Part shown: positions 7,479 to 31,018 of the stretch, piece after piece
How positions within the stretch are numbered: position 1 is the first letter of the stretch
Layout of the letters: each line of letters begins with the position of its first letter
Origin: Agilicoccus flavus
GTDB taxonomy: Bacteria > Actinomycetota > Actinomycetes > Actinomycetales > Dermatophilaceae
Length of the DNA: 64,000 bases
Assembly (NCBI RefSeq): GCF_014857905.1
Contig: NZ_JACYXE010000011.1
Coordinates: 94,100 to 158,099 of the forward strand
Direction of reading: 5' to 3'
Position numbers and translations under genes: made by a program
The notes under the pieces: model-generated
What the model saw: the letters and a program-made list of their open reading frames with translations, nothing else
Database searches by the model: none
What the model was told of the DNA's origin: nothing

Positions 7479-8519
7479 TCACGTCACCTCGATCGTCACC
7501 ACGGCGGGCTCGGAGGGTGGGGTCGGCGGGGCGTCGACGTCGCCGATCCGCGGGGTGTCGGCGGCGACGGCGCGGGAGACGCAGGCGCACAGGCGGGAGT
7601 CCTGCGCCTTCTCGTCGGCGGAGAGGAAGACGTCCCGGTGGTCGAGGCGGCCGTCGAGGTCGAGCACCGCTACCTGGCACAGGCCGCACTCGCCCTTGCG
7701 GCAGTCGAACATCATCTCGACGCCGGCGGCCTCGAGGGCCTCGAGCATCGTCGAGTTCGCGTCGACGCGGGTCTGCACCCCCAGGCGCGGGATGCGCACG
7801 ATGAAGTCCTGCGGGGCCCAGGCCCCCGAGTTGCCGAACGTCTCGAAGCGCAGGTTCGTCGCCGGCAGGCCACGGTTCTCCCAGCCGCGACGCACCGCGT
7901 CCATGAGGCGGATCGGCCCGCACAGGTACAGCTCGGTCGCCGCGGCCCGCGGGTCGGCGGCGATCGAGTCGAGCAGGGCGTCGACGTCGAGGCCGGTGCC
8001 CTCGTCGTCGACGTGCGCGCTCAGCCGGTCGCCGTGCGCGAGCGCGAGGGCGTCGAGGTAGGCCATCGCCGGACGGGTCCGGCCGACGTAGACGAGCTCG
8101 TAGTCGGCCCGCCGAGCGGCCAGGGTGCGTGCCATCCCCGCCACCGCGGTGATGCCGATGCCGCCCGCGAGCAGCACGTACCGCGCCGCGCCGACGCCGA
8201 GCGGGAAGTTCTGCAGCGGCTGGGTCGCCCGCAGGACCGCCCCCGGCGCGAGCGCGTGCATCGCGGCCGACCCGCCCCGGCTCGTCGCGGACAGGTGCAC
8301 CGACAGGGCGAGCTCCCGCCCGTCGTCGGAGGCGTCGACCACGGAGTAGGAGCGGGTGAGCACCCCCTCGCCCGACGGGATCTCGACGTCGACGTGCGCG
8401 CCGGCCCGCGCCGGTTGCGGCGCGTCGTACCGCAGCACGACCCGGCGGATGCGGTCGGCGACGTCGCGGGTGTCGACGACGGTGACGTCCTGCCAGCGCG
8501 GGGTGTGGTCCGCCGCCAT
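7479..8519 (-). CDS. Phthalate dioxygenase reductase / VanB-type ferredoxin reductase
   Basis: A 346-residue three-domain electron-transfer protein. An FMN/FAD-binding RSYS motif lies at 56-59, a nucleotide-binding AGGIGIT at 118-124, and a C-terminal plant-type [2Fe-2S] ferredoxin domain has the cysteine pattern FDCRKGECGLC near 271 plus a last cysteine near 308. This order is that of PDR/VanB reductases, which move electrons from NAD(P)H to a Rieske oxygenase. The partner oxygenase lies immediately upstream with one base between its stop and this ATG, so the pair is a two-component oxygenase operon. Substrate is not readable; VanAB-like O-demethylation of methoxybenzoates is one option. Confidence 0.9.
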   Translation of the reverse strand: MAADHTPRWQDVTVVDTRDVADRIRRVVLRYDAPQPARAGAHVDVEIPSGEGVLTRSYSVVDASDDGRELALSVHLSATSRGGSAAMHALAPGAVLRATQPLQNFPLGVGAARYVLLAGGIGITAVAGMARTLAARRADYELVYVGRTRPAMAYLDALALAHGDRLSAHVDDEGTGLDVDALLDSIAADPRAAATELYLCGPIRLMDAVRRGWENRGLPATNLRFETFGNSGAWAPQDFIVRIPRLGVQTRVDANSTMLEALEAAGVEMMFDCRKGECGLCQVAVLDLDGRLDHRDVFLSADEKAQDSRLCACVSRAVAADTPRIGDVDAPPTPPSEPAVVTIEVT

Positions 8520-8520
8520 G

Positions 8521-9642
8521 TCAGGCGCGCCCCTCGGCCGCCATCATCCGCTCGAGGATGCGCCGGGCCCACATGCCGCCCATGTCGATGTTGAGGCTGT
8601 AGAACTCGTGCCCCGGGTTGGCGTCGATCGCCTCCTGCTGGGCGATGAGCATCTCCTCGTCCTCGCCGAAGACGCCGTGCACACCCTCGCGGAGCTGGGT
8701 CGTGATGAGCTGGGAATCGAGCCGGTAGTTGCGCATGAACGCCCAGAAGTAGTGGCTCGTGCGGTCGGTCTCCGGGGTCATCGTGTTCATGACGTACCCG
8801 TTGACACCCTGGCTGCGGTCGCCTTCCGGGGCGCCGGTGCCGGCCTTGGCGACGCCCACGTCGATGCAGATCGTCGACGGCGCCTCGAAGTGGATGATCT
8901 GCCAGCGGTCGACCTTGCCCGAGAAGCCGGGGAACTTGTCGCGCATGTTCTTCAGCCAGAACGGCGGCGGGTCGATGTCGCGCATCCACCGCGTGACGGT
9001 GACGGTGCGCTCGTCGTGGATCGTCTCGAAGCTCGCCTCGCTCAGCTCCTCCTGCCCGATGGAGCTGGAGTGGACGAACTCCTCGTGGGTCAGGTCCATG
9101 AGGTTGTCGATGATGAGCTGGTAGTTGCACCCGGCGTCGATCGTCCGGCCGTCGCCGGCCCACTCGGGGCTGCTCATCTGGTGCATGTCGGGGATCGTCG
9201 CGGGGTCGGCGAGGTCGGGGTCGCCGAGCCACACCCAGACGTAGCGGTACCGCTCGACGGCCGGGTAGGCCGGGACGGTCGCGCTCGGGTTGAGGGTCTG
9301 CTGCGCCGGCATGTGCGTGCATCGCCCGGCCGCGTTGTAGCGCATGCCGTGGTACGGGCACTGGATCTCCTCGTCGCCGACGAGCCGGCCCTTGCTCAGC
9401 GGCGCGAGGCGGTGCCAGCACGCGTCGGCGAGGGCGGCGATCCGGCCGTCGCCCGTGCGGTAGAGCGCGAGCGGCCGGTCGCAGACGCGGCGGGCGAGGA
9501 TGCCCCGCGAGGTGACCTCGTGGTCCCAGGCCGCCACGTACCAGGCGTTGAGCGGGTAACCGAAGATCTTCGCGGTCGTGCGCGGGCCGGGAGCGGGCGC
9601 CGGGGCGCTCGCCTGTGCCGGGCGCGGTGCGGTCATCGTCAT
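8521..9642 (-). CDS. Rieske non-heme iron oxygenase, alpha subunit (VanA-like)
   Basis: A 373-residue aromatic-ring oxygenase or demethylase. Rieske ligands are visible as C75-x-H77 and C95-x2-H98, and the mononuclear iron motif D183-x2-H186-x4-H191 follows in the C-terminal domain. The frame is open further upstream, but the ATG at 9642 is preferred because GAAGGAG lies five bases before it and the Rieske domain then sits at the usual distance from the N-terminus. Electrons come from the reductase encoded directly downstream. The PadR gene starts 151 bases away on the other strand with a palindrome between them, so the pair is probably repressed by PadR and induced by an aromatic acid. Confidence 0.9.
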   Translation of the reverse strand: MTMTAPRPAQASAPAPAPGPRTTAKIFGYPLNAWYVAAWDHEVTSRGILARRVCDRPLALYRTGDGRIAALADACWHRLAPLSKGRLVGDEEIQCPYHGMRYNAAGRCTHMPAQQTLNPSATVPAYPAVERYRYVWVWLGDPDLADPATIPDMHQMSSPEWAGDGRTIDAGCNYQLIIDNLMDLTHEEFVHSSSIGQEELSEASFETIHDERTVTVTRWMRDIDPPPFWLKNMRDKFPGFSGKVDRWQIIHFEAPSTICIDVGVAKAGTGAPEGDRSQGVNGYVMNTMTPETDRTSHYFWAFMRNYRLDSQLITTQLREGVHGVFGEDEEMLIAQQEAIDANPGHEFYSLNIDMGGMWARRILERMMAAEGRA

Positions 9643-19305: not shown

Positions 19306-20280
19306 TTAGGTGGATCCGGCCTCGGTGAGGACCGGGTTCTGACGGTAGTGCTTCGCCGACTGAGATGCCCAGTAGTTGGCCTCGAGCTCGGCTGGTGGGA
19401 CGAGTCCGACCTCGCCGTGAAGTCGTCGGTGGTTGAACCAGTCGACGTACTCGGCGACGGCGATCTCGACGTCGCCGACGTTCTTCCAGCCGCCGACGGG
19501 CCGCATGATCGCGTTGCGGATGCACTCGAACTTGAACAGCGAGTTGAGCGCCTCGGCCATGGCAGTGTCGTAGCTATCGCCCTTCGACCCGACGGATGCG
19601 ACGGCCTCGGCCTCGGCGAGCCGTTCGGTGTATCGGATGGCTCGATACTGGACGCCTCTGTCGCTGTGGTGGATCAGGCTGTTGACGTCCTGGCCGGCGC
19701 GCTGCCGGGCCCACAGCCCCATGTCGAGGGCGTCGAGTGCGAGGTCGGTGCGTAGCGGCGTGGACACCTGCCAGCCGACGATCATCCGGCTGAACACGTC
19801 CAGGACGAACGCGACGTACGTCCAGCCCGAGTGGGTGCGTACGTAGGTCAGATCGGCCACCCACAGCTGGTTCGGCGCGGTCGCGATGAACTTCCGGTCG
19901 ACGAGGTCTTCGGGCCGCTCGGTCTGGGCACCGTCGCCGATGGTGGTCTTGCGGGTCTTCTCCCGCGGGATACCGCGCAGGCCGTCGGCCTTCATCAGCC
20001 GCTCGACGGTGCAGCGGGCAACGGTGACGCCCTCACGGCCCAGCTCAGCGTGGATCTTCCGGGCTCCGTAGACGCCGAGGTTGGCCTTGTGCGCGGTCCG
20101 AATGTCGGTGATCAGCTCAGCGTCACGGACCGCTCGTGCCGAAGGCGGCCGCTTCTGGGCGGCGTAGTAGGTGCTCGGGGCGATCTGCACGCCTGCGTCC
20201 TTCAAGACGCCGCAGATCGGCTCGACCCCGAACGCCTCGCGGTACTGGTCGACGTAGTCGACGGCCACCGCGGTGGGCAC
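19306..20280 (-). CDS. IS3-family transposase OrfB (DDE integrase core)
   Basis: A 324-residue transposase with the rve integrase core. The DDE residues are visible as D143 in LWVADLTYV, D207 in HHSDRGVQY and E243 in TAMAEALN. The N-terminal HTH_21 region carries the usual LGVYGARKIHAEL. The annotated GTG start at 20280 lies just after the orfA stop. The frame is -1 relative to orfA and stays open upstream through it, so the natural product is probably an OrfAB fusion made by ribosomal frameshifting. A T6C run inside orfA (plus-strand GAAAAAA near 20318) is a possible slip site. The protein cuts and joins the ends at 19276 and 20657. Confidence 0.93.
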   Translation of the reverse strand: MPTAVAVDYVDQYREAFGVEPICGVLKDAGVQIAPSTYYAAQKRPPSARAVRDAELITDIRTAHKANLGVYGARKIHAELGREGVTVARCTVERLMKADGLRGIPREKTRKTTIGDGAQTERPEDLVDRKFIATAPNQLWVADLTYVRTHSGWTYVAFVLDVFSRMIVGWQVSTPLRTDLALDALDMGLWARQRAGQDVNSLIHHSDRGVQYRAIRYTERLAEAEAVASVGSKGDSYDTAMAEALNSLFKFECIRNAIMRPVGGWKNVGDVEIAVAEYVDWFNHRRLHGEVGLVPPAELEANYWASQSAKHYRQNPVLTEAGST

Positions 20281-21212: not shown

Positions 21213-21941
21213 GTGGCCGAGCAGCTCGACCTCGAGACCGGATTCGACGAGGCGGCGCCGAGGTACGACCTCCTCGTCGCCCTCAACCCCGGCTACCACC
21301 ACCACCTGCGGGCCGGCGCCCGCGACCTCGTCGACCCTCTGGCCGCCGACGCCGGGGGCGCGTCCAGCCTCGTCGACCTCGGCTGCGGGTCGGGGGCCTC
21401 GACGATCGCACTCACCCTCGCCGCGCCCGGCGCCCGGGTCGTCGGCGTGGACGCCTCCTCCGGGATGCTCGCCCAGGCCCGCCGCAAGCCCTGGCCCGAC
21501 GGCGTCGAGTTCATCCACTCCGCGGCCCAGCGCTTCGACGCGGTGCTCGCGGACCGGGGGATCGGCGCGGTCGACGGCGTCTTCGCCGCCTACCTCCTGC
21601 GCAACGTGCCCGATCACCAGCGCGACGACGTCGTCACCGCGGTCGCCTCGGCCCTGCGCCCCGGCGGACGGTTCGTCACCCAGGAGTACTCGGTGGCCGG
21701 GCGGCCGCTCGCGATCGGCGTCTGGAGCCTCGTGTGCTGGCTCGTCGTCGTGCCCCTGTCGGTCATCGTGCGGGGCCACCCGCGCCTGTACCGCTACCTG
21801 TGGCGCAGCGTGCTCGACTTCGACTCCACCGCGGTCCTGGCCGACCGCTTCCGCCGCGCGGGCCTCGTCGACGTCCGCGTGAGCACCGTCGGCGGCTGGC
21901 AGCGGGGCATCCTGCACACCGTCAGCGGCCGTCGACCGTGA
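21213..21941 (+). CDS. crtT: Carotenoid-cluster SAM-dependent methyltransferase, CrtT-like
   Basis: A 242-residue class I methyltransferase with the SAM-binding motif VDLGCGSGAS at residues 54-63, a second motif around VVGVDASSGML and a hydrophobic segment (IGVWSLVCWLVVVPLSVIV, about 165-190) suggesting membrane association. The GTG at 21213 follows AAGGA; earlier in-frame starts run through IS remnants and are rejected. The stop overlaps the GTG of crtU (GTGA, 21938-21941). The order methyltransferase then crtU matches the crtY-crtT-crtU layout of Streptomyces isorenieratene loci; no crtY is adjacent here. The methylated substrate of CrtT proteins is not established as far as I know. Confidence 0.75.
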   Translation: MAEQLDLETGFDEAAPRYDLLVALNPGYHHHLRAGARDLVDPLAADAGGASSLVDLGCGSGASTIALTLAAPGARVVGVDASSGMLAQARRKPWPDGVEFIHSAAQRFDAVLADRGIGAVDGVFAAYLLRNVPDHQRDDVVTAVASALRPGGRFVTQEYSVAGRPLAIGVWSLVCWLVVVPLSVIVRGHPRLYRYLWRSVLDFDSTAVLADRFRRAGLVDVRVSTVGGWQRGILHTVSGRRP

Positions 21942-23500
21942 GCGCCGCCGAGCCCGGCGCCCGGTTCCCCGGCCGCGACCCCCGCGCCGTCCGCCACCCC
22001 GGCGCCCCGGGCGCCCGGCGCGTGGAGCAGGACCGTCACGTGGCCGTCGTCGGCGGCGGCATCGCGGGTCTGGCCGCGGCCGCCGGGCTCGCCGAGCGCG
22101 GGGTGCGCGTCACTCTCCTCGAGGCGTTGCCGCAGCTCGGCGGGCGCGTGGCCGCCTGGCCGGTCGGTCAGGGCGACGGCTCATCGTCCGCGCCACGGAC
22201 GATGAGCCGTGGCTTCCACGCCTTCTTTCGGCAGTACTACAATCTGCGCGCCCTGCTGCGGCGGGCCGACCCGGAACTGTCGCGGCTGCGACCGGTGCCC
22301 GACTACCCGCTCGTGCGCGCCGATGGGGTCCGCGACTCGTTCGCCGCCATCCCCCGCACGCCGCCGTGGAGCCTGATCGGGTTCGTCCGGCAGAGCCCGA
22401 CCTTCCCGCTGCGGGCGCTCGCGCGCGTGGACCTCCGGGCGGCCCTCGACCTCGTCGACGTCGACTACCCCGCCTCCTACCCCGCCTACGACGGGGTCAG
22501 CGCGCAGGACGTGCTCGACCGGCTCCGGTTCCCGCAGGACGCCCGCCACCTCGCGCTCGAGGTGTTCGCCCGCTCGTTCTTCGCGCACCCGAGCGAGTTC
22601 TCCGGTGGCGAGCTCGTCGCGATGTTCCACACGTACTTCACCGGCTCGGCCGAGGGCCTCCTCTTCGACGTGCCCGACGACGACTACGACACCGCCCTGT
22701 GGGGTCCGCTGGGCGGGTATCTCGCCGGGCTCGGGGTCCGGACGCGCACGTGGTCGGGCGTCGACCACGTCGACCTGACCGGGGAACGCGCCGCCGTGCA
22801 CGTCTCGGGCGAGCGGATGGAGGTCGACGGCGTCGTCCTCGCCACCGACCCCCGGACGACCCGCCGCCTCGTGGGGGAGGGCGCCGGGCTCGACGCGGCG
22901 TGGCGGGACCGCGTCCTCGCCGGCCGCAACGCCCCCCCGTTCGCGGTGAGCCGGCTGTGGCTCGATCGCCCTGTCGACCCGCGCCGCGAGGCATTCCTCG
23001 GGACCGCGGGCTACGAGCTGCTCGACAACGTCACCGTCCTCGAGCGCTTCGAGGCCGGCGCCGCGCGCTGGTCCGACACGCACGGCGGGTCGGTCGTCGA
23101 ACTGCACGGCTACGCCCTCGACCCGGACCGCGACCCCCGCGTGGCCGACCACGCCTGGGTGGCCGCCACCCTGCGGGACGAGCTCGCCGCCGTCTACCCC
23201 GAGACCGCGCAGGCGCAGACCCGGCACGAGGAGCTGCTCGTCCTCGACGACTGCGGCCTCGTCGGCACGTCGCCGTGGGCGGAGCGGCCGGGGGTGCGCA
23301 CCCCCGACCCGCGGCTCGTCCTCGCCGGCGACGCCGTGCGCACCGACCTGCCGGTCGCGCTCATGGAACGCGCCGCGACCACCGGCCTCGAGGCCGCCAA
23401 CGAGCTGCTGGGCGGGTGGGGCGCCGCGGGGCACGACCGCTGGAGCGTGCCCATGCGCGGGCTCTTGCGCCGCCTGCCCGGCCGGGGCCGGCGACGCTGA
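21938..23500 (+). CDS. crtU: Isorenieratene synthase-like carotene desaturase/methyltransferase, CrtU
   Basis: A 520-residue flavoprotein of the CrtI-like amine-oxidase fold with dinucleotide motif VVGGGIAGL at 38-46. The stretches MSRGFHAFFRQYYNLR, EGLLFDVPDD, SRLWLDRPV and DLPVALMERAATTG are characteristic of CrtU, the enzyme that desaturates and shifts a methyl group in beta-ionone rings to give aromatic phi end groups (isorenieratene). It is co-translated with the methyltransferase (GTGA overlap). It converges on a VOC gene and on the photolyase-crtI operon, so both strands of the locus serve carotenoid synthesis. Its own promoter must lie near the IS remnant at 21.0-21.2 kb. Confidence 0.82.
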   Translation: MSAAEPGARFPGRDPRAVRHPGAPGARRVEQDRHVAVVGGGIAGLAAAAGLAERGVRVTLLEALPQLGGRVAAWPVGQGDGSSSAPRTMSRGFHAFFRQYYNLRALLRRADPELSRLRPVPDYPLVRADGVRDSFAAIPRTPPWSLIGFVRQSPTFPLRALARVDLRAALDLVDVDYPASYPAYDGVSAQDVLDRLRFPQDARHLALEVFARSFFAHPSEFSGGELVAMFHTYFTGSAEGLLFDVPDDDYDTALWGPLGGYLAGLGVRTRTWSGVDHVDLTGERAAVHVSGERMEVDGVVLATDPRTTRRLVGEGAGLDAAWRDRVLAGRNAPPFAVSRLWLDRPVDPRREAFLGTAGYELLDNVTVLERFEAGAARWSDTHGGSVVELHGYALDPDRDPRVADHAWVAATLRDELAAVYPETAQAQTRHEELLVLDDCGLVGTSPWAERPGVRTPDPRLVLAGDAVRTDLPVALMERAATTGLEAANELLGGWGAAGHDRWSVPMRGLLRRLPGRGRRR

Positions 23501-23557: not shown

Positions 23558-23971
23558 TCACTCGGGCGCGTGGCAGACGGCCTCCACGTTGACGCCGTCG
23601 GGGTCGTTCACGAACGCGCCGTAGTAGGTGGGGTGGTACTCGGCGCGCACGGCGGGGGCGTCGCGCGACGTGGCTCCGGCGGCGAGCGCCGCCTCGTGGA
23701 AGGCGCGGACGTCGTCCCGCGTGGGCACGGTGAACGCGACATGCGGGGGCGGGTCGGACGGGCGGCCCTGCACGAGCCAGAAGAACGGCTTGTGCTCCCA
23801 CCCGAAGCCGTGCATCCACGGGCCGTCGGGACCGGTCGCGCCGGGCGGGACGTCCATGAGGCTGACGATGCCGATTGACTCCAGGGCGGGTGCGTAGAAC
23901 GCGAGCGCGCGTTCCATATCGGAGACGACGATGTTGAGGTGATCGAGACGGGAGCCGGTGAAGTCGGGCAC
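23558..23971 (-). CDS. VOC (glyoxalase/bleomycin resistance) family protein
   Basis: A 137-residue single VOC module: RLDHLNIVVSDMERALAFYAPAL at the N-terminus and YYGAFVNDPDGVNVEAVCH at the C-terminus give the paired beta-alpha-beta-beta-beta units with metal-ligand-type His and Glu. Members are metal-dependent isomerases, dioxygenases or drug binders. The GTG at 23971 has GGAGG five bases upstream. It lies 80 bases downstream of the flavin monooxygenase on the same strand and might be the last gene of the carotenoid operon, though nothing ties it to carotenoids directly. Confidence 0.82.
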   Translation of the reverse strand: MPDFTGSRLDHLNIVVSDMERALAFYAPALESIGIVSLMDVPPGATGPDGPWMHGFGWEHKPFFWLVQGRPSDPPPHVAFTVPTRDDVRAFHEAALAAGATSRDAPAVRAEYHPTYYGAFVNDPDGVNVEAVCHAPE

Positions 23972-24051: not shown

Positions 24052-25254
24052 CTACGATCGGCGCAGCAGCGCCGCGGCCCGGCCGGCGAGCGACACGGCC
24101 CCCAGGGTCGCGGCGGTGGGGACCCGGCCCCGCAGGCGGCGCTGCCACGTCAACGGAGCCAACGACTCCGCGACGGCGGCGGGCGCGTAGCCGAGCATCT
24201 CGGCGTACGCGCGCTCGACCGCCTCGGGCACGGCCTCGGGCAGCGACTCCGTCTCCCGCAGGGCCCGGGCGAGGCCGCCGGCGTCTCGGATGGCCGTGCT
24301 ACCGCCCACGCCGCCCGTCGCGGGCATCGGGTGCACCGCGTCCCCGAGCACCGCGACCCGACCGGCCGAGCGCACCCAGTCCTCGCTCGGCGCCCAGAAC
24401 GGGAAGCTCGCCACCCCGTCCGGGTCGGAGGCCGCGACGAGGTCGCGCAACGGGGCGGCCCACCCCCGCAGCCGGCGCACGGCCTCGGTGCGCAGCTCGG
24501 CGCCGGTGGCCCCGCGCAGGTCGGCGCCGAAATGGCGCGGGGCGGCCGCGATGCTCCACAGCAGTTCCGGGCGATCGGGCCGGCTGCGGTCGAGGGTGAG
24601 GAACGCGCCGAGGCCGTCGGGACCCAGCGCGAACGCCGGCCCCGTGAGCAGCGGCGACGCGGCGCGAGGGCCGCCCCAGCCGGCGACGGCGTCGACGTCG
24701 ACGCCCGCCGTGCCCGCGATGGCGACGACGTCCACGGGGCGGCACGTCGCACCGCCCCGCAGCGGCCGCGCCACGCTCGAGCCCGTCCCGTCGGCGGCCA
24801 CGAGCAGGTCGAACCGGTCGCTGCGCCCGTCGGAGAACGACACGGTCACGCCGTCGCCGTCGGCGGCCCAGGCGGTCACCCGGGTGCCCCACCGCACCGC
24901 TCCCGCCTCCTGCGCGAGGACCTCCCGCAGCCTCGGCCGCGCGACGAGCAGCGCGGGCCCGTCGTCGACGGGCAGGACGATCCGCGCCCGCAGCCGCGCG
25001 TCGAGGACCGCGAACGTCCGCAGGGCACGCTCGTCCTCGCCGGCCCCGCGGAGCTCCCGCCACAGCCGCGGGGGCAGCGTCGCGGACAGCACGTCCACCG
25101 CGGGAGTCGTCAGGTGGATGCGGTACCCGCTCGTGTCGCCGGGTCCGGCGGAGGGGTCGACGAGCGTGACGTCCCAGCGCTCGTCGAGCGCGCAGGCGAG
25201 GGTCGCTCCGGCCAGGCCGGCGCCGGCGATGCAGACCCTCGCCCGAGGGCTCAC
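24052..25254 (-). CDS. FAD-dependent monooxygenase (PHBH fold) in the carotenoid operon
   Basis: A 400-residue group A flavin monooxygenase with GAGLAG at residues 11-16, the mid-region DLLVAADGTGSSVAR (DG-type motif near 155) and GDAVHPMPATGGVGGS at 304-319 which binds the FAD ribityl chain. It does not look like lycopene cyclase CrtY, whose motifs are absent. The GTG start at 25254 overlaps the stop of the CrtB-Rieske gene (GTGA), so it is the fifth gene of the operon. A role in hydroxylating the carotenoid, for example its aromatic end group, is inference from position only; related enzymes act on many aromatic compounds. Confidence 0.82.
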   Translation of the reverse strand: MSPRARVCIAGAGLAGATLACALDERWDVTLVDPSAGPGDTSGYRIHLTTPAVDVLSATLPPRLWRELRGAGEDERALRTFAVLDARLRARIVLPVDDGPALLVARPRLREVLAQEAGAVRWGTRVTAWAADGDGVTVSFSDGRSDRFDLLVAADGTGSSVARPLRGGATCRPVDVVAIAGTAGVDVDAVAGWGGPRAASPLLTGPAFALGPDGLGAFLTLDRSRPDRPELLWSIAAAPRHFGADLRGATGAELRTEAVRRLRGWAAPLRDLVAASDPDGVASFPFWAPSEDWVRSAGRVAVLGDAVHPMPATGGVGGSTAIRDAGGLARALRETESLPEAVPEAVERAYAEMLGYAPAAVAESLAPLTWQRRLRGRVPTAATLGAVSLAGRAAALLRRS

Positions 25255-27428
25255 CACGGCCCGCCGCCCTCGTCGCCGAGGCGGTCGGGCCGTTCCGTGC
25301 GCTCGGCGCGCCGCTCGATCCGGCGCGCACGCACGAGGTGCCGGCGCTCGGCGTACTCGAGGTCGTCGACCCACAGCTGTCGCTGGGTGCGTTCCATGAG
25401 GGGCCGGACGATCGGCGCGAGCCGCCGTGCGAGGGCGAAACCGGGCCGGGGGGAGTGGGCCACCGTCGCCTCGACCATCATCGTCAGCGGCCGCCCGTCG
25501 CAGTCCACCCCGAACGGCGTCGCGTGGGTCTCGACGACGCTGCCGGCGCCCTCGCCCTTCGTGATGTGCATCGCGATCGTGCGGGCGTCCGGGCACGTGA
25601 ACTCCGCCGTCACCGGCACGCCCCACGTCTTGTCGAGGCGGAAGGTCACGTCGGTGACGAGCCGGTCGTCGGTACTCGCCTCCTCGTCGACGACGAGGTG
25701 GCTGAACGCGTACGGGTGGAACCACGCGCCGTGCCACGGGTCGAGGCGGTTGGCGATGATGTCGGCCGGCTCGCAGCGCCCGGGGACGGCGATCACCGAC
25801 GCGATCGACGCCGCGGCCGGCGGGCGAGCGGTGAGGGTGGGCGCGTCGGCGGGCTCCTCGCCCGGGGTGGGCAGCCGCACCCACAGCAGCACCCCGTCGT
25901 CGAGCGCCGGGTAGGGGGACCACAGCCGGTCCCCGTCGGCGTTCAGGGCGAGCCCGTGCCACCGGCACAACAGGCTCGAACCGACGACGGTGCACCCGTG
26001 CAGGCTCGCGCCCATGTGCGGGCACTCGCCGGGCCCGGCCACGAAGCGCCCGTCGGCTCCCCGCCAGAGCACGACCTCGCGCCCGAGAACGGTGCGCACG
26101 ACCGACGTCGCCCCCACGTCGGTCGACGCGCCGACGACGTGCCACCCGCCCGGGTCGCGCTGCTGGGCGCGGCGCAGGGCCTTCGCGATCCGCGGCACGC
26201 TCGCCTGCCGCCACGTCGTGCGCAGGTGCGCCTCGTCGGGCTGCGGCATCCGCTTGATCGGGATGTCGGGGCGGGCGAGCACCCGCGCGAGGCGGGACCC
26301 GCCGCGCTCCTCTCGCACGTCGGGGTCGAACGCCGGGGCCGTCCCCGCCCCGCGGGCGAGCACGTCGGCGACAACGATGGCCTTGTCGGCCCGCGAGACC
26401 CGCTGCCGCTGCGAGAAGACGTCGTAGTCGGCCCGCTCGATGCGGGTGAGGATCTCGGAGTACATCCGGTGCGCGACGGCGACGCATCGCCCGGACGCAC
26501 CCGGCAGGAGGTCGATGCCCGGGCGCGCCTGTTCGTACAGCTCCCGGTTGCGGGCGATCTGCGCCGCGAGGAACGCGCGCCACGCCGGGGTCACCTCCCG
26601 CGACCACGGGTCGGCGCCGTACGCGGCGAGCTCGTCGGCGGGCAGGTAGACCCGGCCGCGATCGAGGTCCTCGCCCACGTCGCGGAGGAAGTTCGTCAGC
26701 TGGAACGCGAGCCCGAGGGCCCGCGCCGGGCCGCGGGCCGCCTCGCGGTCGGCCGGCTCGAGGACCGGCAGCATCATCTCGCCGATGACGGCCGCCGACC
26801 CCTCCATGTAACCGTCGCGCAGCTCGGCCCAGCTCGCCCATGAGTCGCGCGTGAGGTCGAGGCGCATCGCGCCGAAGAACCGGTCGAAGCAGTCGAGGGG
26901 GATGTCGCGGCGCGTGATCGTGTCGACGATCGCCGCCATGATCGGGTCGTCCACGCGCCCCGGGCCCGCGGCCAGGGAGTCGCGGAACCACGCCTCGAAC
27001 GCCTCGAGCCGCTGCTTCGGACCGACGCCGCGCACCGACGCGAGCAGCCGCGGGTCGAGGTCGTAGCCGTCGAGGCCGGGTCCGTCGTCGTGGGCCGCGT
27101 CGCGGGCGGCGATCGCGTCCCCGTCCGACCCCGGCGTCAACACGTGCGTCCCGTCGAGCAGACCGACCTTCTCGGGTTCGTCGACGATGTCGTCGGCGAG
27201 GCGGCACAGCGCGTACACGGCGTAGACGTCCCGGCGCTGCGCCGGCGCGAGGAGCTGCGTGCCCCACCAGTACGTCGTGCCGTGGGCCCGGGTGATGTCC
27301 GCGCACCGCTCGTACCCCACGCGCAGCCGCTCGGAGGCCACCCGCTCGCCGGCGGCGCCCTGGAGGGAACTCGTCGGCGTCGCCTCGGCGCGGCCCGGTC
27401 GCGTCCCGGGGAGAACCCGCAGACTCAT
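25251..27428 (-). CDS. crtB: Fusion of phytoene synthase (CrtB) and a Rieske non-heme iron oxygenase (DUF5914-like)
   Basis: One uninterrupted 725-residue frame. Residues about 30-370 are phytoene synthase: RLADDIVDE at 76-84 and NFLRDVGEDLDRGR at 246-259 are the two Asp-rich motifs that bind GGPP diphosphates. Residues about 405-725 are a Rieske oxygenase: [2Fe-2S] ligands C469-x-H471 and C488-x2-H491, then the mononuclear iron motif D563-x2-H566-x4-H571. The second half resembles stand-alone actinobacterial DUF5914 proteins found near crt genes. No ribosome site or likely start breaks the frame between domains. GAGGAG precedes the ATG, ten bases after the crtI stop. The first half condenses two GGPP to phytoene; the substrate of the oxygenase half is unknown. 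Confidence 0.88.
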   Translation of the reverse strand: MSLRVLPGTRPGRAEATPTSSLQGAAGERVASERLRVGYERCADITRAHGTTYWWGTQLLAPAQRRDVYAVYALCRLADDIVDEPEKVGLLDGTHVLTPGSDGDAIAARDAAHDDGPGLDGYDLDPRLLASVRGVGPKQRLEAFEAWFRDSLAAGPGRVDDPIMAAIVDTITRRDIPLDCFDRFFGAMRLDLTRDSWASWAELRDGYMEGSAAVIGEMMLPVLEPADREAARGPARALGLAFQLTNFLRDVGEDLDRGRVYLPADELAAYGADPWSREVTPAWRAFLAAQIARNRELYEQARPGIDLLPGASGRCVAVAHRMYSEILTRIERADYDVFSQRQRVSRADKAIVVADVLARGAGTAPAFDPDVREERGGSRLARVLARPDIPIKRMPQPDEAHLRTTWRQASVPRIAKALRRAQQRDPGGWHVVGASTDVGATSVVRTVLGREVVLWRGADGRFVAGPGECPHMGASLHGCTVVGSSLLCRWHGLALNADGDRLWSPYPALDDGVLLWVRLPTPGEEPADAPTLTARPPAAASIASVIAVPGRCEPADIIANRLDPWHGAWFHPYAFSHLVVDEEASTDDRLVTDVTFRLDKTWGVPVTAEFTCPDARTIAMHITKGEGAGSVVETHATPFGVDCDGRPLTMMVEATVAHSPRPGFALARRLAPIVRPLMERTQRQLWVDDLEYAERRHLVRARRIERRAERTERPDRLGDEGGGPW

Positions 27429-27438
27429 CGCACGCTCC

Positions 27439-28971
27439 TCACGCGTCGTACGCCGCGACCCGCGCGGCGGCCAGCTTTCCGGAGATCAGCACCATCGGGA
27501 CGCCGACGCCCGGCACGGTGCCCGAGCCCGCGAAGAACACGCCGGGCCGCCGCTTCTCGACGTTGGGCGGCCGGAACGGGCCCGTCTGCGCGAACGTGTG
27601 CGCGAGGGCGAACGGCGTGCCTGCCGCCATGCCCTGCGCCTCCCACTGCACGGGCCCGACGAACTCGTCGGTGACGACGTCGGTCGGGTAGCCCTCGGCG
27701 TCGAGGAACCCCAAGAGCCGCTCCTTCATCCGCGGCTCCTCCGCGGCCCAGTCGATGCGGCCGACGGCGAGGTTCGGCACCGGCTCGAGCACGTACAGCG
27801 TCGAGCACCCGTCGGGCGCCGCCTCCGTGTCGTGCAGCGAGTGCGCGGTGACGAGCCGCGACGGGTCGCTCATGAGCGTGCCCCGCTTCAGCAGGTCGTC
27901 GAAGGCGCCCTCCCACTCCGCTCCGAAGTGGATGTTGTGGTGGGCCGCCTGCGGCGGCAGCTCGCCGCGGACCCCGAGGTGCCAGACGACGGCCGACGGC
28001 GAGTAGTCGCCGCCGCGGACGCCCGCGACGCCGCGCGGCGGGGTGAGGTCGGGCAGCAGCCGTTCGTAGGCCACGGGCAGGTCGGGGGTGAGGACGACCG
28101 AGGCGGCCTCGATCCGCTCCCCGCCCTCGAGCTCGACGCCGGTGACCTCGCCCGACGCGGCGGTCGTCAGCCGCGACACGCCCTGCCCGTAGCGGAACTC
28201 GACCCCGGCCCGTTCGGCCGCGGCCGCCATCGCGGCCGGCACGGCGCGCATGCCGCCTGCCGGGAACCAGACCCCCTCGATGGAGTCCATGTACGTGATG
28301 ACCGCGTAGATCGCGAGCGCGTCGTTCGGCGCCAATCCGGCGTACATGGCCTGGAACGAGAAGAGGCGGTGCAGCCGTTCGTCGCGGAACCGCCGCGCGA
28401 TGGCGGGCCCCAGCCGGCCGAAGCCCCCGAGCCGCAGGAGCTCCGCCGCCGCCCGCGGACTGCGCAGCAGGTCGATCGGGGAGTCGAAGTTCGCGTCGAT
28501 GAAGTGCGGCATCTCGGCGATGTACAGCTTGCGCAGCCAGACGACGAACTCGTCGAAGGCGGCGGCGTCGAGGCTGCCGCTCTGGGCCGCGATCTCGGCG
28601 CGCATCGCCTCGTGGCCGTGCCGGACGTGCAGGGTCGATCCGTCCGCGAACCGGCCGCGGTAGGCGGGGTCGAGCAGCGTGAGGTCGAGCTCGTCGTGCA
28701 CGCGGGTGCCGACGGCCCGCATCGCCTCGTCGATGAGGTCGACCATGGTCAGCACGGTCGGGCCGGTGTCGAAGGTGAACCCGTCTCGGACGAGGACGCC
28801 GTTCCGGCCGCCGGGGCCGTCCTCGCGCTCGACGACGACGACCTCGCGGCCCTGGGCGCGCAGGTGGCAGGCGGCGGACAGGCCGGCGAGGCCGGCGCCC
28901 ACGACGACGACCGGGCGCCCTCGGCCGGATCGGTCGCCCCGGGCGGGCCCGGTCCGGTGCGTCGGGCTCAT
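27439..28971 (-). CDS. crtI: Phytoene desaturase
   Basis: A 510-residue CrtI-type desaturase: FAD dinucleotide motif VVVGAGLAGL around 23-31, the ERED...GGRNGVLVRDGFTFDTGPTV region, and the C-terminal FFAGSGTVPGVGVPMVL signature of bacterial phytoene desaturases. It converts phytoene to lycopene using FAD and an electron acceptor at the membrane. The ATG overlaps the idi stop (ATGA, 28968-28971) and the stop is ten bases before the CrtB-Rieske ATG, so expression is coupled with isoprenoid supply and phytoene synthesis. Confidence 0.93.
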   Translation of the reverse strand: MSPTHRTGPARGDRSGRGRPVVVVGAGLAGLSAACHLRAQGREVVVVEREDGPGGRNGVLVRDGFTFDTGPTVLTMVDLIDEAMRAVGTRVHDELDLTLLDPAYRGRFADGSTLHVRHGHEAMRAEIAAQSGSLDAAAFDEFVVWLRKLYIAEMPHFIDANFDSPIDLLRSPRAAAELLRLGGFGRLGPAIARRFRDERLHRLFSFQAMYAGLAPNDALAIYAVITYMDSIEGVWFPAGGMRAVPAAMAAAAERAGVEFRYGQGVSRLTTAASGEVTGVELEGGERIEAASVVLTPDLPVAYERLLPDLTPPRGVAGVRGGDYSPSAVVWHLGVRGELPPQAAHHNIHFGAEWEGAFDDLLKRGTLMSDPSRLVTAHSLHDTEAAPDGCSTLYVLEPVPNLAVGRIDWAAEEPRMKERLLGFLDAEGYPTDVVTDEFVGPVQWEAQGMAAGTPFALAHTFAQTGPFRPPNVEKRRPGVFFAGSGTVPGVGVPMVLISGKLAAARVAAYDA

Positions 28972-29654
28972 CGCGGCACCTCGTTGGGGTGGACGGCGCG
29001 CAGGCGGGCGCCGAGGGGGGTGGCCACGAGGCGGGCGTCGACGTGCGGCACCTGCAGGACGGACCACGGGCTGAACACGGCCGGCGTCGCGGCGACGGCC
29101 CGGGCGTAGTCGGCCCAGGGGATCCAGGAGTGCTCGACGACCTCGGCCGGGTCGGCCCGCACCGGGCCGCGCGCGGTGCCCACGTAGACCGGGCACACCT
29201 CGTTCTCGACGACGCCGCTCGCGTCCACCGCCCGGTAGCGGAAGTCGGGGACGACCGGGGTCACGTCCTGCACGTCGAGCCCCAGCTCCTCACGCACCCG
29301 CCGACGGACCGCGACGACCGGGTCCTCGTTCGGGCGGGGGTGCCCGCAGCAGGAGTTCGTCCACACGCCCGGCCACGTCTTCTTGCTCAGGGCGCGGCGC
29401 GTGATGAGCACCCGCCCCTCGTCGTCGAAGAGGTGGATCGAGAACGCGAGGTGCAAGGGGGTGTCGGAGCCGTGCACGGCCAGGCGCGGTGCGCGCCCGA
29501 TGGCGGTGCCGTCCTCGTCGAGGAGGACGACGTCGTCGTCGGTGCCGGAAACTGCCGTGGTGCCGGCGAGGTGGGTGGCGCCGGTGATGTCGGTGTCCGC
29601 GGTGGGCTGCGGGTCGGTCCGGGCGATGTCGGGGCGGGGGGCGGGTGCGGTCAT
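28968..29654 (-). CDS. idi: Isopentenyl-diphosphate delta-isomerase, type I
   Basis: A 228-residue Nudix-fold isomerase interconverting IPP and DMAPP. The catalytic cysteine lies in WTNSCCGHPRP (about C102-C103), the metal-binding histidines in HLAFSIHLF and GHP, and the Nudix-type glutamates in RRRVREELGL (about E122-E123). An N-terminal extension of about 40 Thr/Ala/Asp-rich residues is absent from shorter homologues; a later start is not excluded, but the ATG at 29654 overlaps the photolyase stop (ATGA), which favours it. The gene supplies precursor for the carotenoid genes downstream. Confidence 0.93.
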   Translation of the reverse strand: MTAPAPRPDIARTDPQPTADTDITGATHLAGTTAVSGTDDDVVLLDEDGTAIGRAPRLAVHGSDTPLHLAFSIHLFDDEGRVLITRRALSKKTWPGVWTNSCCGHPRPNEDPVVAVRRRVREELGLDVQDVTPVVPDFRYRAVDASGVVENEVCPVYVGTARGPVRADPAEVVEHSWIPWADYARAVAATPAVFSPWSVLQVPHVDARLVATPLGARLRAVHPNEVPR

Positions 29655-31018
29655 GCCGTGGCGGCCTCGTACCGGGCGAGCGTCTCGCGACGCTCCTCGG
29701 CGTGATCGACGATGGGTCGGGGATACCCGTGATCGTAGGCGCCGTCCGCGGTCCAGGGCTCGTGGACCGCCTTCCCGCGGACGTGCGCCAGCTCGGGGAC
29801 GTAGGTGCGGACGTAGTCGCCGTCCGGGTCGAACTTGTGCCCCTGCGTCACGGGGTTGAACACGCGGAAGTACGGCGAGGCGTCGGTGCCGGTGCCGGCG
29901 ACCCATTGCCAGCCGTGGTTGTTCGAGGCGAGATCGCCGTCGCGCAGGTGGTCGAGGAAGTGGCGCGCGCCGTGCGGCCACCAGATGTGCAGGTCCTTGG
30001 TGAGGAAGGACGCGACGACCATCCGCACCCGGTTGTGCACCCAGCCCCGGGTGAGGAGCTGGCGCATCCCGGCGTCGACGAAGGGGTAGCCCGTCGTGCC
30101 CGTGCACCACGCCTCGAGCGCCTCGCGGGCCGCGCCGTCGGTCTCCGGGTCGTCGTAGCGCAGCTGGGCGAGGGTGTCGCGGTAGTCGTGCCACGCCGAC
30201 CTCGGGTGGTGCCAGACGACGTCGGCGTAGAATTCGCGCCACGCGAGCTCGGTGACGAACTTCTGGGCCGACGTGCTCGCGCCGGCCTCGTGGGCGGCGA
30301 TGTCGGCGAGCATCGTGCGCGGGTGGATCGTGCCGTACTTGAGGTGCTCCGACATGCGGGACGTGACGTCGAGGTCGGCCCGGTCGCGCTCGGAGCCGTA
30401 CGTGGCGAGGTCCTCGTCGAGGAACTCGCGCCACCGGGTGAGCGCCGGCACGTCCTGCCCGGGCGCGTCGTCGATCTCCGGCAGCGCGTCCAGGCCCTCG
30501 GAGTCGACGCGGCGGCAGAAGCGCAGGCCTGCCGGAGCGCTCTCCGGGGCAGGCCAGCCGTGGTCGCGCCACGCCCGGGAGAACGGGGTGAACACCTGAT
30601 ACGGTGAGCCGCTCGTCGTGCGGACCTGACCGGGGGAGACGGCGTACGGGGTGCCGGCGGCGTGCATGGGCACGTCGCCCAGGGCATCATGGACGCGGCG
30701 CCCGCGGAGCCGGCCGTAGGGGGTCGACTCGCCGCTGACGTGCACGCTGCTCGCCCCGGCCTCTTGCACGACCCGGGGCACGACGGTGGCCGGATCGCCG
30801 CTGCGCACGACGAGCGAGCCGTCGTACTCCTCGTGCGCCTGGACGAGGGCCCAGCGCAGCGAGGCGAGCCGGGCGCGGCCCGCGCTCGCGAGCAGCGTGG
30901 GGTCGAGAACGAAGAGGGGAAGGACGTCCCCGCCGGTGGCGGCTTCGTGGGCGGCGTGAAGTGCGGGATGATCGTGCAAGCGGAGGTCTCGACGGAGCCA
31001 CAGCACTGTCGTCGCCAC
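29651..31018 (-). CDS. phrB: Deoxyribodipyrimidine photolyase
   Basis: A 455-residue class I CPD photolyase or cryptochrome family member. The N-terminal antenna-binding domain starts TTVLWLRRDLRLHDHPAL; the C-terminal FAD domain has ELAWREFYADVVWHHPR, YPFVDAGMRQL, GWVHNRVRMVVASFL and HFLDHLRDGDLASNNHGWQWVAGTG, including the DLASNN and WQW elements. It repairs UV dimers with blue light. GTG start at 31018 with AAGGA upstream. It is the first gene of the five-gene operon with idi, crtI, CrtB-Rieske and the flavin monooxygenase, a logical light-defence unit, and is divergent from a MarR regulator. Confidence 0.94.
   Translation of the reverse strand: MATTVLWLRRDLRLHDHPALHAAHEAATGGDVLPLFVLDPTLLASAGRARLASLRWALVQAHEEYDGSLVVRSGDPATVVPRVVQEAGASSVHVSGESTPYGRLRGRRVHDALGDVPMHAAGTPYAVSPGQVRTTSGSPYQVFTPFSRAWRDHGWPAPESAPAGLRFCRRVDSEGLDALPEIDDAPGQDVPALTRWREFLDEDLATYGSERDRADLDVTSRMSEHLKYGTIHPRTMLADIAAHEAGASTSAQKFVTELAWREFYADVVWHHPRSAWHDYRDTLAQLRYDDPETDGAAREALEAWCTGTTGYPFVDAGMRQLLTRGWVHNRVRMVVASFLTKDLHIWWPHGARHFLDHLRDGDLASNNHGWQWVAGTGTDASPYFRVFNPVTQGHKFDPDGDYVRTYVPELAHVRGKAVHEPWTADGAYDHGYPRPIVDHAEERRETLARYEAATA

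What the first reader, a model, noticed from the sequence alone, without database searches (positions are those of the whole stretch)
25251..27428. Phytoene synthase fused to a Rieske non-heme iron oxygenase in one 725-residue protein
Both halves keep complete active-site motifs: two Asp-rich motifs in the CrtB half, and C-x-H/C-x2-H plus D-x2-H-x4-H in the oxygenase half. The frame is unbroken and no internal start is evident. A condensing enzyme and a terpenoid oxygenase joined in one chain implies either direct channelling of a carotenoid intermediate or fixed stoichiometry. DUF5914-like Rieske proteins near crt genes have, as far as I know, no demonstrated reaction.
Basis: partly seen in the sequence, partly recalled or inferred. 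Interest (0 to 1): 0.72.

Follow-up and report, generated by a model that had tools for sequence, protein, structure and literature searches.

The report
First-and-last carotenoid enzyme fusion (CrtB–CrtV)
One bacterial gene joins a predicted phytoene synthase, which would start carotenoid synthesis, to a predicted Rieske-type iron oxygenase that likely hydroxylates the finished aromatic pigment; the same fusion recurs across actinobacteria, and sampled genomes that have the predicted aromatic-ring enzyme but lack this oxygenase carry a P450 gene that probably does the same job.

Summary
Window 25251-27428 (-) is one open 725-codon gene: a phytoene synthase-like half (CrtB), a linker predicted to be flexible, then a Rieske oxygenase with DUF5914, with all catalytic motifs intact. 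It is not a one-off: 77 of 120 listed relatives (window included) have the same three domains, and fused and separate states interchange at least 5 times on the tree. The Rieske half is CrtV of Streptomyces isorenieratene clusters, where crtB and crtV overlap by 4 nt. CrtV follows crtU (aromatic-ring formation), not crtB: all 36 CrtV genomes of 149 have CrtU; 0 of 22 with crtB-like genes but no CrtU have CrtV. The 8 CrtU genomes without CrtV carry one P450 family, in 7 near crtU; 0 of 55 CrtV loci hold it and 0 of 80 P450 loci hold CrtV. Its loci include Brevibacterium aurantiacum ATCC 9175; isorenieratene hydroxylation in that species is attributed in print to a P450. So the fusion most likely joins the first and last enzymes of hydroxy-aryl-carotenoid synthesis; direct channelling is unlikely. 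CrtV's reaction was proposed in 2018; I found no demonstration.

The parts
25251..27428 (-). crtB-crtV fusion gene, 725 aa
   Evidence: ORF; Pfam; 10 nt after the crtI stop with AGGAG before the ATG
26349..27428 (-). CrtB (phytoene synthase-like) half, residues 1-360; Asp-rich motifs D79/D80/D83 and D250/D254; extra loop 86-135, largely of low model confidence
   Evidence: best solved relative CrtM-like 8is6 (Foldseek E 1e-14)
26244..26348 (-). linker, residues 361-395
   Evidence: mean pLDDT 66, 45 and 56 for residues 361-390 in blocks of ten; length of the matching stretch 11-142, median 28, across 78 fusions
25908..26144 (-). Rieske [2Fe-2S] domain, residues 429-507, ligands C469, H471, C488, H491
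   Evidence: PF00355; ligands in 77 of 78 fusions
25323..25865 (-). DUF5914 (PF19299) catalytic domain, residues 522-702; D563, H566, H571 and D688/D689 as predicted iron site
27439..28971 (-). crtI-like phytoene desaturase
   Evidence: TIGR02734 469.6 bits, cut-off 238.1; start placed at the ATGA overlap with idi
28968..29654 (-). idi, isopentenyl diphosphate isomerase-like (NUDIX)
   Evidence: PF00293; ATGA overlap with phr
29651..31018 (-). DNA photolyase
   Evidence: PF03441 and PF00875
31125..31619 (+). MarR-family regulator, divergent
   Evidence: PF12802/PF01047
24052..25254 (-). FAD-dependent monooxygenase, start overlaps the fusion's stop (GTGA)
   Evidence: PF01494; overlap; no relative in the 54 other CrtV stretches or the 80 P450 stretches
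23558..23971 (-). glyoxalase/VOC-family protein
   Evidence: PF00903
21938..23500 (+). crtU-like FAD enzyme (desaturase/methyltransferase type), convergent with the fusion operon
   Evidence: PF01593, HpnE-like but under that model's cut-off; partner of CrtV throughout the family; 53-59% identical to the CrtU of family codes f5 and f6
21213..21941 (+). crtT-like SAM methyltransferase (start uncertain), 4-nt overlap with crtU
   Evidence: PF01209/PF13649; overlap

Best explanation
The gene at 25251-27428 (-) is a natural fusion of crtB (predicted phytoene synthase) with crtV (a predicted Rieske non-heme iron oxygenase with DUF5914) that likely hydroxylates the aromatic end rings of isorenieratene, so one chain would carry both the first and the last enzyme of hydroxy-aryl-carotenoid synthesis. 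Shown by sequence: one open frame, both sets of active-site residues, recurrence of the fusion, genomic dependence of CrtV on crtU, and near-exclusion between CrtV and one crtU-linked P450 family. Inferred: the CrtB half condenses two GGPP to phytoene; CrtI, the unlinked CrtY-like cyclase and CrtU convert it through lycopene and beta-carotene to isorenieratene; the CrtV half, fed electrons by a reductase or ferredoxin encoded elsewhere, adds a hydroxyl to each ring (position 3, by analogy with the S. argillaceus products and the Brevibacterium pigments); CrtT would then methylate it. The fusion probably arose and broke several times because the separate genes mostly overlap by 4 nt (ATGA/GTGA), so one small indel can join them; it would tether the two enzymes or fix their ratio rather than pass an intermediate between them.
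Against: No biochemical test exists here; gene presence does not fix the reaction or ring position. Two genomes (G006, G055) hold both CrtV and the P450, in different loci. The P450 of G020 reads with two in-frame stops and lies away from crtU. 24 of 80 P450 stretches show no crtU. A more distant P450 relative (43-54% identity) is in 12 further family genomes, 8 of them CrtV genomes, the window's own among these (its frame has one stop); I fetched six of those eight places and found no crt gene beside them, but a pigment role of that P450 is not excluded. Two phylum genomes with a weaker CrtU match (G350 44%, G467 34%) have neither CrtV nor the P450; I left them out of the CrtU count as more distant relatives. 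crtT was not found in 11 of 55 CrtV stretches, some of them cut by contig ends, so methylation is not universal. The CrtB half does not reach the NCBIfam phytoene-synthase cut-offs, nor does the CrtB of the S. griseofuscus cluster. crtY and crtE are not in the cluster; candidates lie on other contigs. Relatives share ancestry, so the Fisher values overstate independence.
Confidence: 0.68

Rival explanations
1. Direct channelling: the oxygenase half acts on phytoene or another early acyclic intermediate handed over from the CrtB half.
For: The two domains share one chain and crtB and crtV are often adjacent (21 of 51 loci) or fused (5 of 51).
Against: CrtV is absent from all 22 crtB-like-positive genomes that lack CrtU; in 21 of 51 loci crtB is on the other strand (13) or 2.5-3.2 kb away with crtT and crtU between (8); the linker ranges from 11 to 142 residues.
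Confidence: 0.06
2. CrtV oxidises a methyl group of the aromatic ring (to alcohol, aldehyde or acid), as CruH does in synechoxanthin synthesis, rather than hydroxylating ring carbon 3.
For: [quoted passage not shown] dicamba-type Rieske monooxygenases attack methyl groups (established knowledge), and that is the best fold match.
Against: The S. argillaceus cluster made 3-hydroxy and 3,3'-dihydroxy leprotene, identified by dereplication, and the crtU-linked P450 that replaces CrtV occurs in Brevibacterium species whose reported pigments include the 3-hydroxy and 3,3'-dihydroxy forms. Relation to CruH by sequence was not tested.
Confidence: 0.13
3. The fusion is a neutral by-product of overlapping genes, without any functional gain from tethering (compatible with the best explanation of what CrtV does).
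For: 16 of 21 separate adjacent pairs overlap by 4 nt; fused and separate states both occur within one genus code, g14; CrtB is also fused to IDI (28 of 120 rows) and to a CrtI-like domain (P0103).
Against: The fused state is shared by groups such as the Nocardioides rows of the trees, with both active sites intact; but those rows were taken from the search for fusions, so separate forms there may have been missed.
Confidence: 0.4
4. Assembly or sequencing artefact joining two overlapping genes.
For: Many relatives are separate, overlapping genes.
Against: 76 other listed proteins with the same fusion; constant GC3 and no ribosome-binding site at the joint.
Confidence: 0.01

Closest known systems
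Streptomyces isorenieratene clusters crtEIBV / crtYTU (S. argillaceus crta in print; S. griseus and S. coelicolor named there or)
   Same: Same gene set and local order on the crtI-crtB-crtV side, with crtU and crtT on the other strand; same DUF5914 oxygenase.
   Different: In the Streptomyces-type loci read here crtB and crtV are two genes, mostly overlapping; in the window they are one. In the window crtE and crtY are not in the cluster, and photolyase, idi, an FAD monooxygenase and a glyoxalase-type gene are.
CrtB-DUF5914 fusions already in databases (Mobilicoccus, Nocardioides, Enemella, Granulicoccus, Streptomyces paromomycinus, Nocardiopsis, Sphaerimonospora)
   Same: Same three-domain architecture.
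   Different: The window's copy has a longer loop at residues 86-135 (50 residues against a median of 9 in 78 fusions); in the three other fused loci read with crtT downstream (L060, L068, L074) the gene order differs.
P450 isorenieratene hydroxylase of Brevibacterium aurantiacum (Dufosse and de Echanove 2005, seen only as cited in PMC12096840)
   Same: Likely the same reaction; a P450 gene lies near crtU in that strain (L179).
   Different: Unrelated protein (heme P450, not Rieske); never in the same stretch as CrtV here. That the gene near crtU is the enzyme of the 2005 paper is inferred.
CruH of cyanobacterial synechoxanthin synthesis
   Same: A Rieske protein acting on an aryl carotenoid (passages).
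   Different: Oxidises ring methyl groups of a chi-ring carotenoid; sequence relation to DUF5914 not tested.
Dicamba O-demethylase (DdmC), guaiacol demethylase 7qwt, KshA
   Same: Rieske monooxygenase fold and ligand set.
   Different: 16-18% identity; no carotenoid role known to me.

Membership tests
Squalene/phytoene synthase (CrtB) | PF00494 above the curated cut-off | tested here: met
   208.9 bits against 26
Squalene/phytoene synthase (CrtB) | two Asp-rich motifs | tested here: met
   D79, D80, D83 and D250, D254 in 78 of 78 fusions
Squalene/phytoene synthase (CrtB) | NCBIfam 15-cis-phytoene synthase equivalog cut-offs | tested here: not met
   NF045686 147.2 of 550, NF045921 103.8 of 500, NF042419 89.6 of 480; the CrtB beside crtI in S. 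griseofuscus also fails, so the models do not seem to cover this branch; called CrtB-like on fold family and context, not as a proven member
Squalene/phytoene synthase (CrtB) | makes phytoene from GGPP | not testable with these tools
   needs an assay
Rieske non-heme iron oxygenase | PF00355 and the C-x-H / C-x2-H cluster ligands | tested here: met
Rieske non-heme iron oxygenase | bridging Asp plus two-His-one-carboxylate iron site | tested here: met
   D563-x2-H566-x4-H571 and D688/D689 conserved; that one of D688/D689 is the third ligand is inferred from the spacing recalled for DdmC
Rieske non-heme iron oxygenase | oxygenase alpha-subunit fold | tested here: met
Rieske non-heme iron oxygenase | reductase/ferredoxin partner and trimeric state | not testable with these tools
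   no reductase among the ten neighbour genes scanned, which does not exclude one elsewhere; assembly state not modelled
CrtV of isorenieratene clusters | PF19299 + Rieske protein beside crtB or crtU in a crtI/B/U cluster | tested here: met
   crtU in 53 of 55 CrtV stretches
CrtV of isorenieratene clusters | hydroxylates isorenieratene | not testable with these tools
   proposed in PMC5993118; genomic support here only
CruH | sequence relation to CruH | not tested
   no identified CruH sequence was fetched

The most novel reading that the evidence does not exclude
DUF5914/CrtV is the Rieske-type isorenieratene 3-hydroxylase of actinobacteria, interchangeable with an unrelated crtU-linked P450, and it has been fused repeatedly to phytoene synthase so that the entry and exit enzymes of phenolic aryl-carotenoid synthesis sit in one chain; in the window a coupled flavin monooxygenase would oxidise the phenolic ring further.
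Probability: 0.5. Interest if true: 0.65.

Novelty: new variant of a known kind. Interest (0 to 1): 0.55.

Why it matters
If right, it supplies a function for DUF5914, a family whose members are labelled 'DUF5914 domain-containing protein' or 'putative methylesterase' in the records I saw. It gives a pair of unrelated enzymes (Rieske and P450) that appear to replace each other for one step of a pigment pathway, a ready test of non-orthologous displacement. It also shows a pathway's first and last enzymes fused more than once, which argues against the usual reading that fused enzymes pass an intermediate between neighbouring steps. 3,3'-Dihydroxyleprotene is cited as superior in preventing photo-oxidative damage (PMC5993118 passage), so a Rieske hydroxylase for it would be a useful tool.

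Tried and rejected
Channelling of phytoene into the oxygenase: rejected on co-occurrence with crtU rather than crtB. Artefact: rejected. Internal start for a separate CrtV: no candidate with a ribosome-binding sequence. Single origin of the fusion: not supported (a single change in 0% of 200 bootstrap trees; its bootstrap had not quite settled). The quick tree with 92 rows gave 13 changes, at least 5 forced, but included 11 database proteins whose separate state I could not check against DNA and one locus at a contig end (L070); I rebuilt with 66 rows, leaving out those, near-duplicates, the short locus L088 and the long-branched fused row L080, and using 21 of the 77 split fusions from the search. 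A link to cyanobacterial CruH: the Leptolyngbya plasmid hits match only the Rieske domain (24% of the query), so no relation is claimed. Composition-based ORF picks contain spurious frames and were used only to notice the P450 genes, which were then checked by tblastn and, for one of them, Pfam. One of three protein searches, the viral collections and the RNA tools were not used.

Limits: some genome searches score only the best first-look candidates per genome (10-11, 3-4), so absences can be false. The P450- and CrtV-selected locus sets are each biased to their query; the P450 scan kept the best 80 of 91 relatives. P450 counts use >=55% identity over most of the length: 9 of the 21 family genomes with any match at 1e-20. 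CrtU counts in the phylum use >=53% identity: 19 of 21 matching genomes. Of 115 crtU-bearing stretches, 49 had CrtV, 63 the P450, none both and 3 neither; the 3 are, by the fetched set, L119, L120 and L121, the last two from genomes whose CrtV lies on another contig. Structure models used 83 (A1) and 60 (A2) of the proteins found.
Full report
The observation. Window 25251-27428 on the minus strand is a single open frame of 725 codons beginning with ATG. Pfam finds SQS_PSY, Rieske and DUF5914, all above the curated cut-offs. Third-position GC is 0.90-1.00 throughout, AGGAG lies just before the ATG, and none of the start-like codons around the joint has a ribosome-binding sequence at the usual distance. 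The gene begins 10 nt after crtI. Upstream, phr/idi and idi/crtI overlap by 4 nt, and downstream an FAD monooxygenase starts inside the fusion's stop codon, so this looks like one tightly packed operon with a divergent MarR gene. Facing it are crtT- and crtU-like genes. A CrtY-like lycopene cyclase (Pfam above cut-off, NCBIfam family model below its cut-off) lies on another contig, and two polyprenyl synthases that could serve as CrtE lie elsewhere.

The fusion is common. Of 120 listed relatives of the whole protein (251 hits in all), 77, window included, have all three domains; named ones come from Mobilicoccus, Nocardioides, Enemella, Granulicoccus, Nocardiopsis, Sphaerimonospora and Streptomyces among others. 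In 78 proteins of 607 aa or more taken from that list the CrtB aspartates are kept in 78 and the Rieske and iron-site residues in 77; the linker stretch is 11 to 142 residues long, median 28. In the AlphaFold model both halves are confident, residues 99-129 and 372-385 are not, and pTM is 0.64, so the relative placement of the halves is unknown. CrtB is also fused to IDI in 28 of the 120 rows and to a CrtI-like domain in one.

Fused and separate states. In 51 loci with DUF5914 (50 fetched plus the window), crtB and the oxygenase gene are fused in 5, adjacent but separate in 21, on the same strand 2.5-3.2 kb apart in 8, on opposite strands in 13, and crtB is not in the stretch in 4. In 16 of the 21 adjacent pairs a crtV start codon overlaps the crtB stop by 4 nt, in 2 more by 1 nt; three of the four plasmid clusters fetched have both genes annotated, and all three show the 4-nt overlap. 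On a tree of 66 oxygenase sequences the fused label needs 8 changes, at least 5 of them forced by well supported branches, and no bootstrap tree of 200 gets by with one. I read this as repeated fusion, and perhaps fission, of overlapping genes.

CrtV follows crtU. In 149 genomes of the window's family, DUF5914 is in 36 and CrtU in 43; all 36 are among the 43. CrtB-like genes are in 63 (the weakest at 40-46% identity may be other synthases); 22 of these lack CrtU and none of the 22 has CrtV. In a phylum sample of 396, CrtV is in 18, all with CrtU at 53% identity or more, and one further genome has such a CrtU without CrtV; two more genomes match CrtU at only 44% and 34%, have neither CrtV nor the P450, and are left out as more distant relatives. 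CrtU was present in 53 of 55 CrtV stretches; the other two genomes carry it on another contig.

A P450 takes its place. The 7 CrtU-positive, CrtV-negative family genomes all have a P450 at 55% identity or more to that of L116; in 6 it lies in the crtU stretch, in the seventh (G020) it is elsewhere and reads with two stops. The phylum genome without CrtV has the P450 at 73% identity, 2 bases from the crtU match. Among 36 CrtV family genomes only G006 and G055, of one genus code, also have this P450, away from the crtV locus. A scan of named genomes gave 80 P450 loci (of 91 relatives): 56 contain crtU, none contains CrtV; none of 55 CrtV stretches contains the P450. On a quick CrtU tree of 89 rows (thinned from 115), the two labels swap 4 times, at least 3 of them forced; the window's own CrtU and that of L080 sit within a clade of 36 rows of which 34 are P450-type. 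Against a simple picture, 12 further family genomes, 8 of them CrtV genomes and one of these the window's own, have a more distant P450 relative (43-54% identity); at the six places fetched no crt gene lies beside it. The P450 loci include Brevibacterium linens ATCC 9172 and B. aurantiacum ATCC 9175. A review passage says that in B. [quoted passage not shown] I did not see the 2005 paper). That this P450 is the enzyme in question is inferred from its place near crtU.

Mechanism. The simplest account is that CrtV and this P450 are alternative hydroxylases of the CrtU product. It fits the S. argillaceus cluster, which in S. albus yielded 3-hydroxy- and 3,3'-dihydroxyleprotene and methylated forms, with CrtaV proposed as hydroxylase and CrtaT as methyltransferase, and it fits the report that crtT and crtV are dispensable for isorenieratene itself in S. 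griseus. crtT accompanies CrtV in 44 of 55 stretches, and the P450 in 23 of the 56 crtU-containing P450 stretches, as one would expect if both oxygenases make a methylatable phenol. The fusion then unites the first committed and a terminal enzyme; at least CrtI, CrtY and CrtU would act between them, so passing an intermediate straight across the chain is unlikely.

Novelty. The word DUF5914 occurs in no paper of the library; no paper joins Rieske with crtU, Streptomyces, hydroxylase and carotenoid; the word crtV occurs with isorenieratene, or with Streptomyces and carotenoid, in one (PMC5993118 writes crtaV and was found through); the search for phytoene synthase, Rieske, fusion and carotenoid found six papers, none about this by title; of 19 papers that name hydroxylated isorenieratene I looked at passages of two. 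The function was proposed in 2018; the fusion as such, the crtU dependence and the P450 exchange I did not find in print, within that open-licence library and these searches only.

Noticed in passing
window 24052-25254 (-): An FAD-dependent aromatic-hydroxylase-like monooxygenase starts in a GTGA overlap with the fusion's stop and has no relative in the 54 other CrtV stretches or 80 P450 stretches; it might oxidise the phenolic carotenoid further.
   Followed up: partly
window 23558-23971 (-): A glyoxalase/VOC-type gene follows the FAD monooxygenase; no match to it was kept in the 50 other CrtV loci.
   Followed up: no
window 21938-23500 (+): The window's CrtU falls inside the P450-type clade of CrtU although the genome has CrtV (quick tree): the cluster looks like a mosaic.
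   Followed up: partly
window 19306-20280 (-): An IS3-type transposase-like ORF (by eye, not scanned) sits near crtT, and the lycopene cyclase is unlinked on another contig (L055 7853-9139); an insertion or rearrangement may have split the cluster.
   Followed up: no
window about 27024-27173, residues 86-135 of the fusion: A 50-residue loop in the CrtB half, against a median of 9 residues in 78 fusions, mostly of low model confidence.
   Followed up: no
P0089-P0120: CrtB-IDI fusions are frequent (28 of 120 listed rows) and a CrtI-like/CrtB fusion exists (P0103): CrtB joins with several operon neighbours.
   Followed up: no
L122 and L070 (G055): One genome carries two crtU loci, one with CrtV and one with the P450.
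   Followed up: partly
L205 about 8044-9309 (-), G000:C26: The window's genome holds a more distant P450 relative (43% identity, one stop in the frame), not beside crt genes; relatives of it occur in 7 other CrtV genomes.
   Followed up: partly
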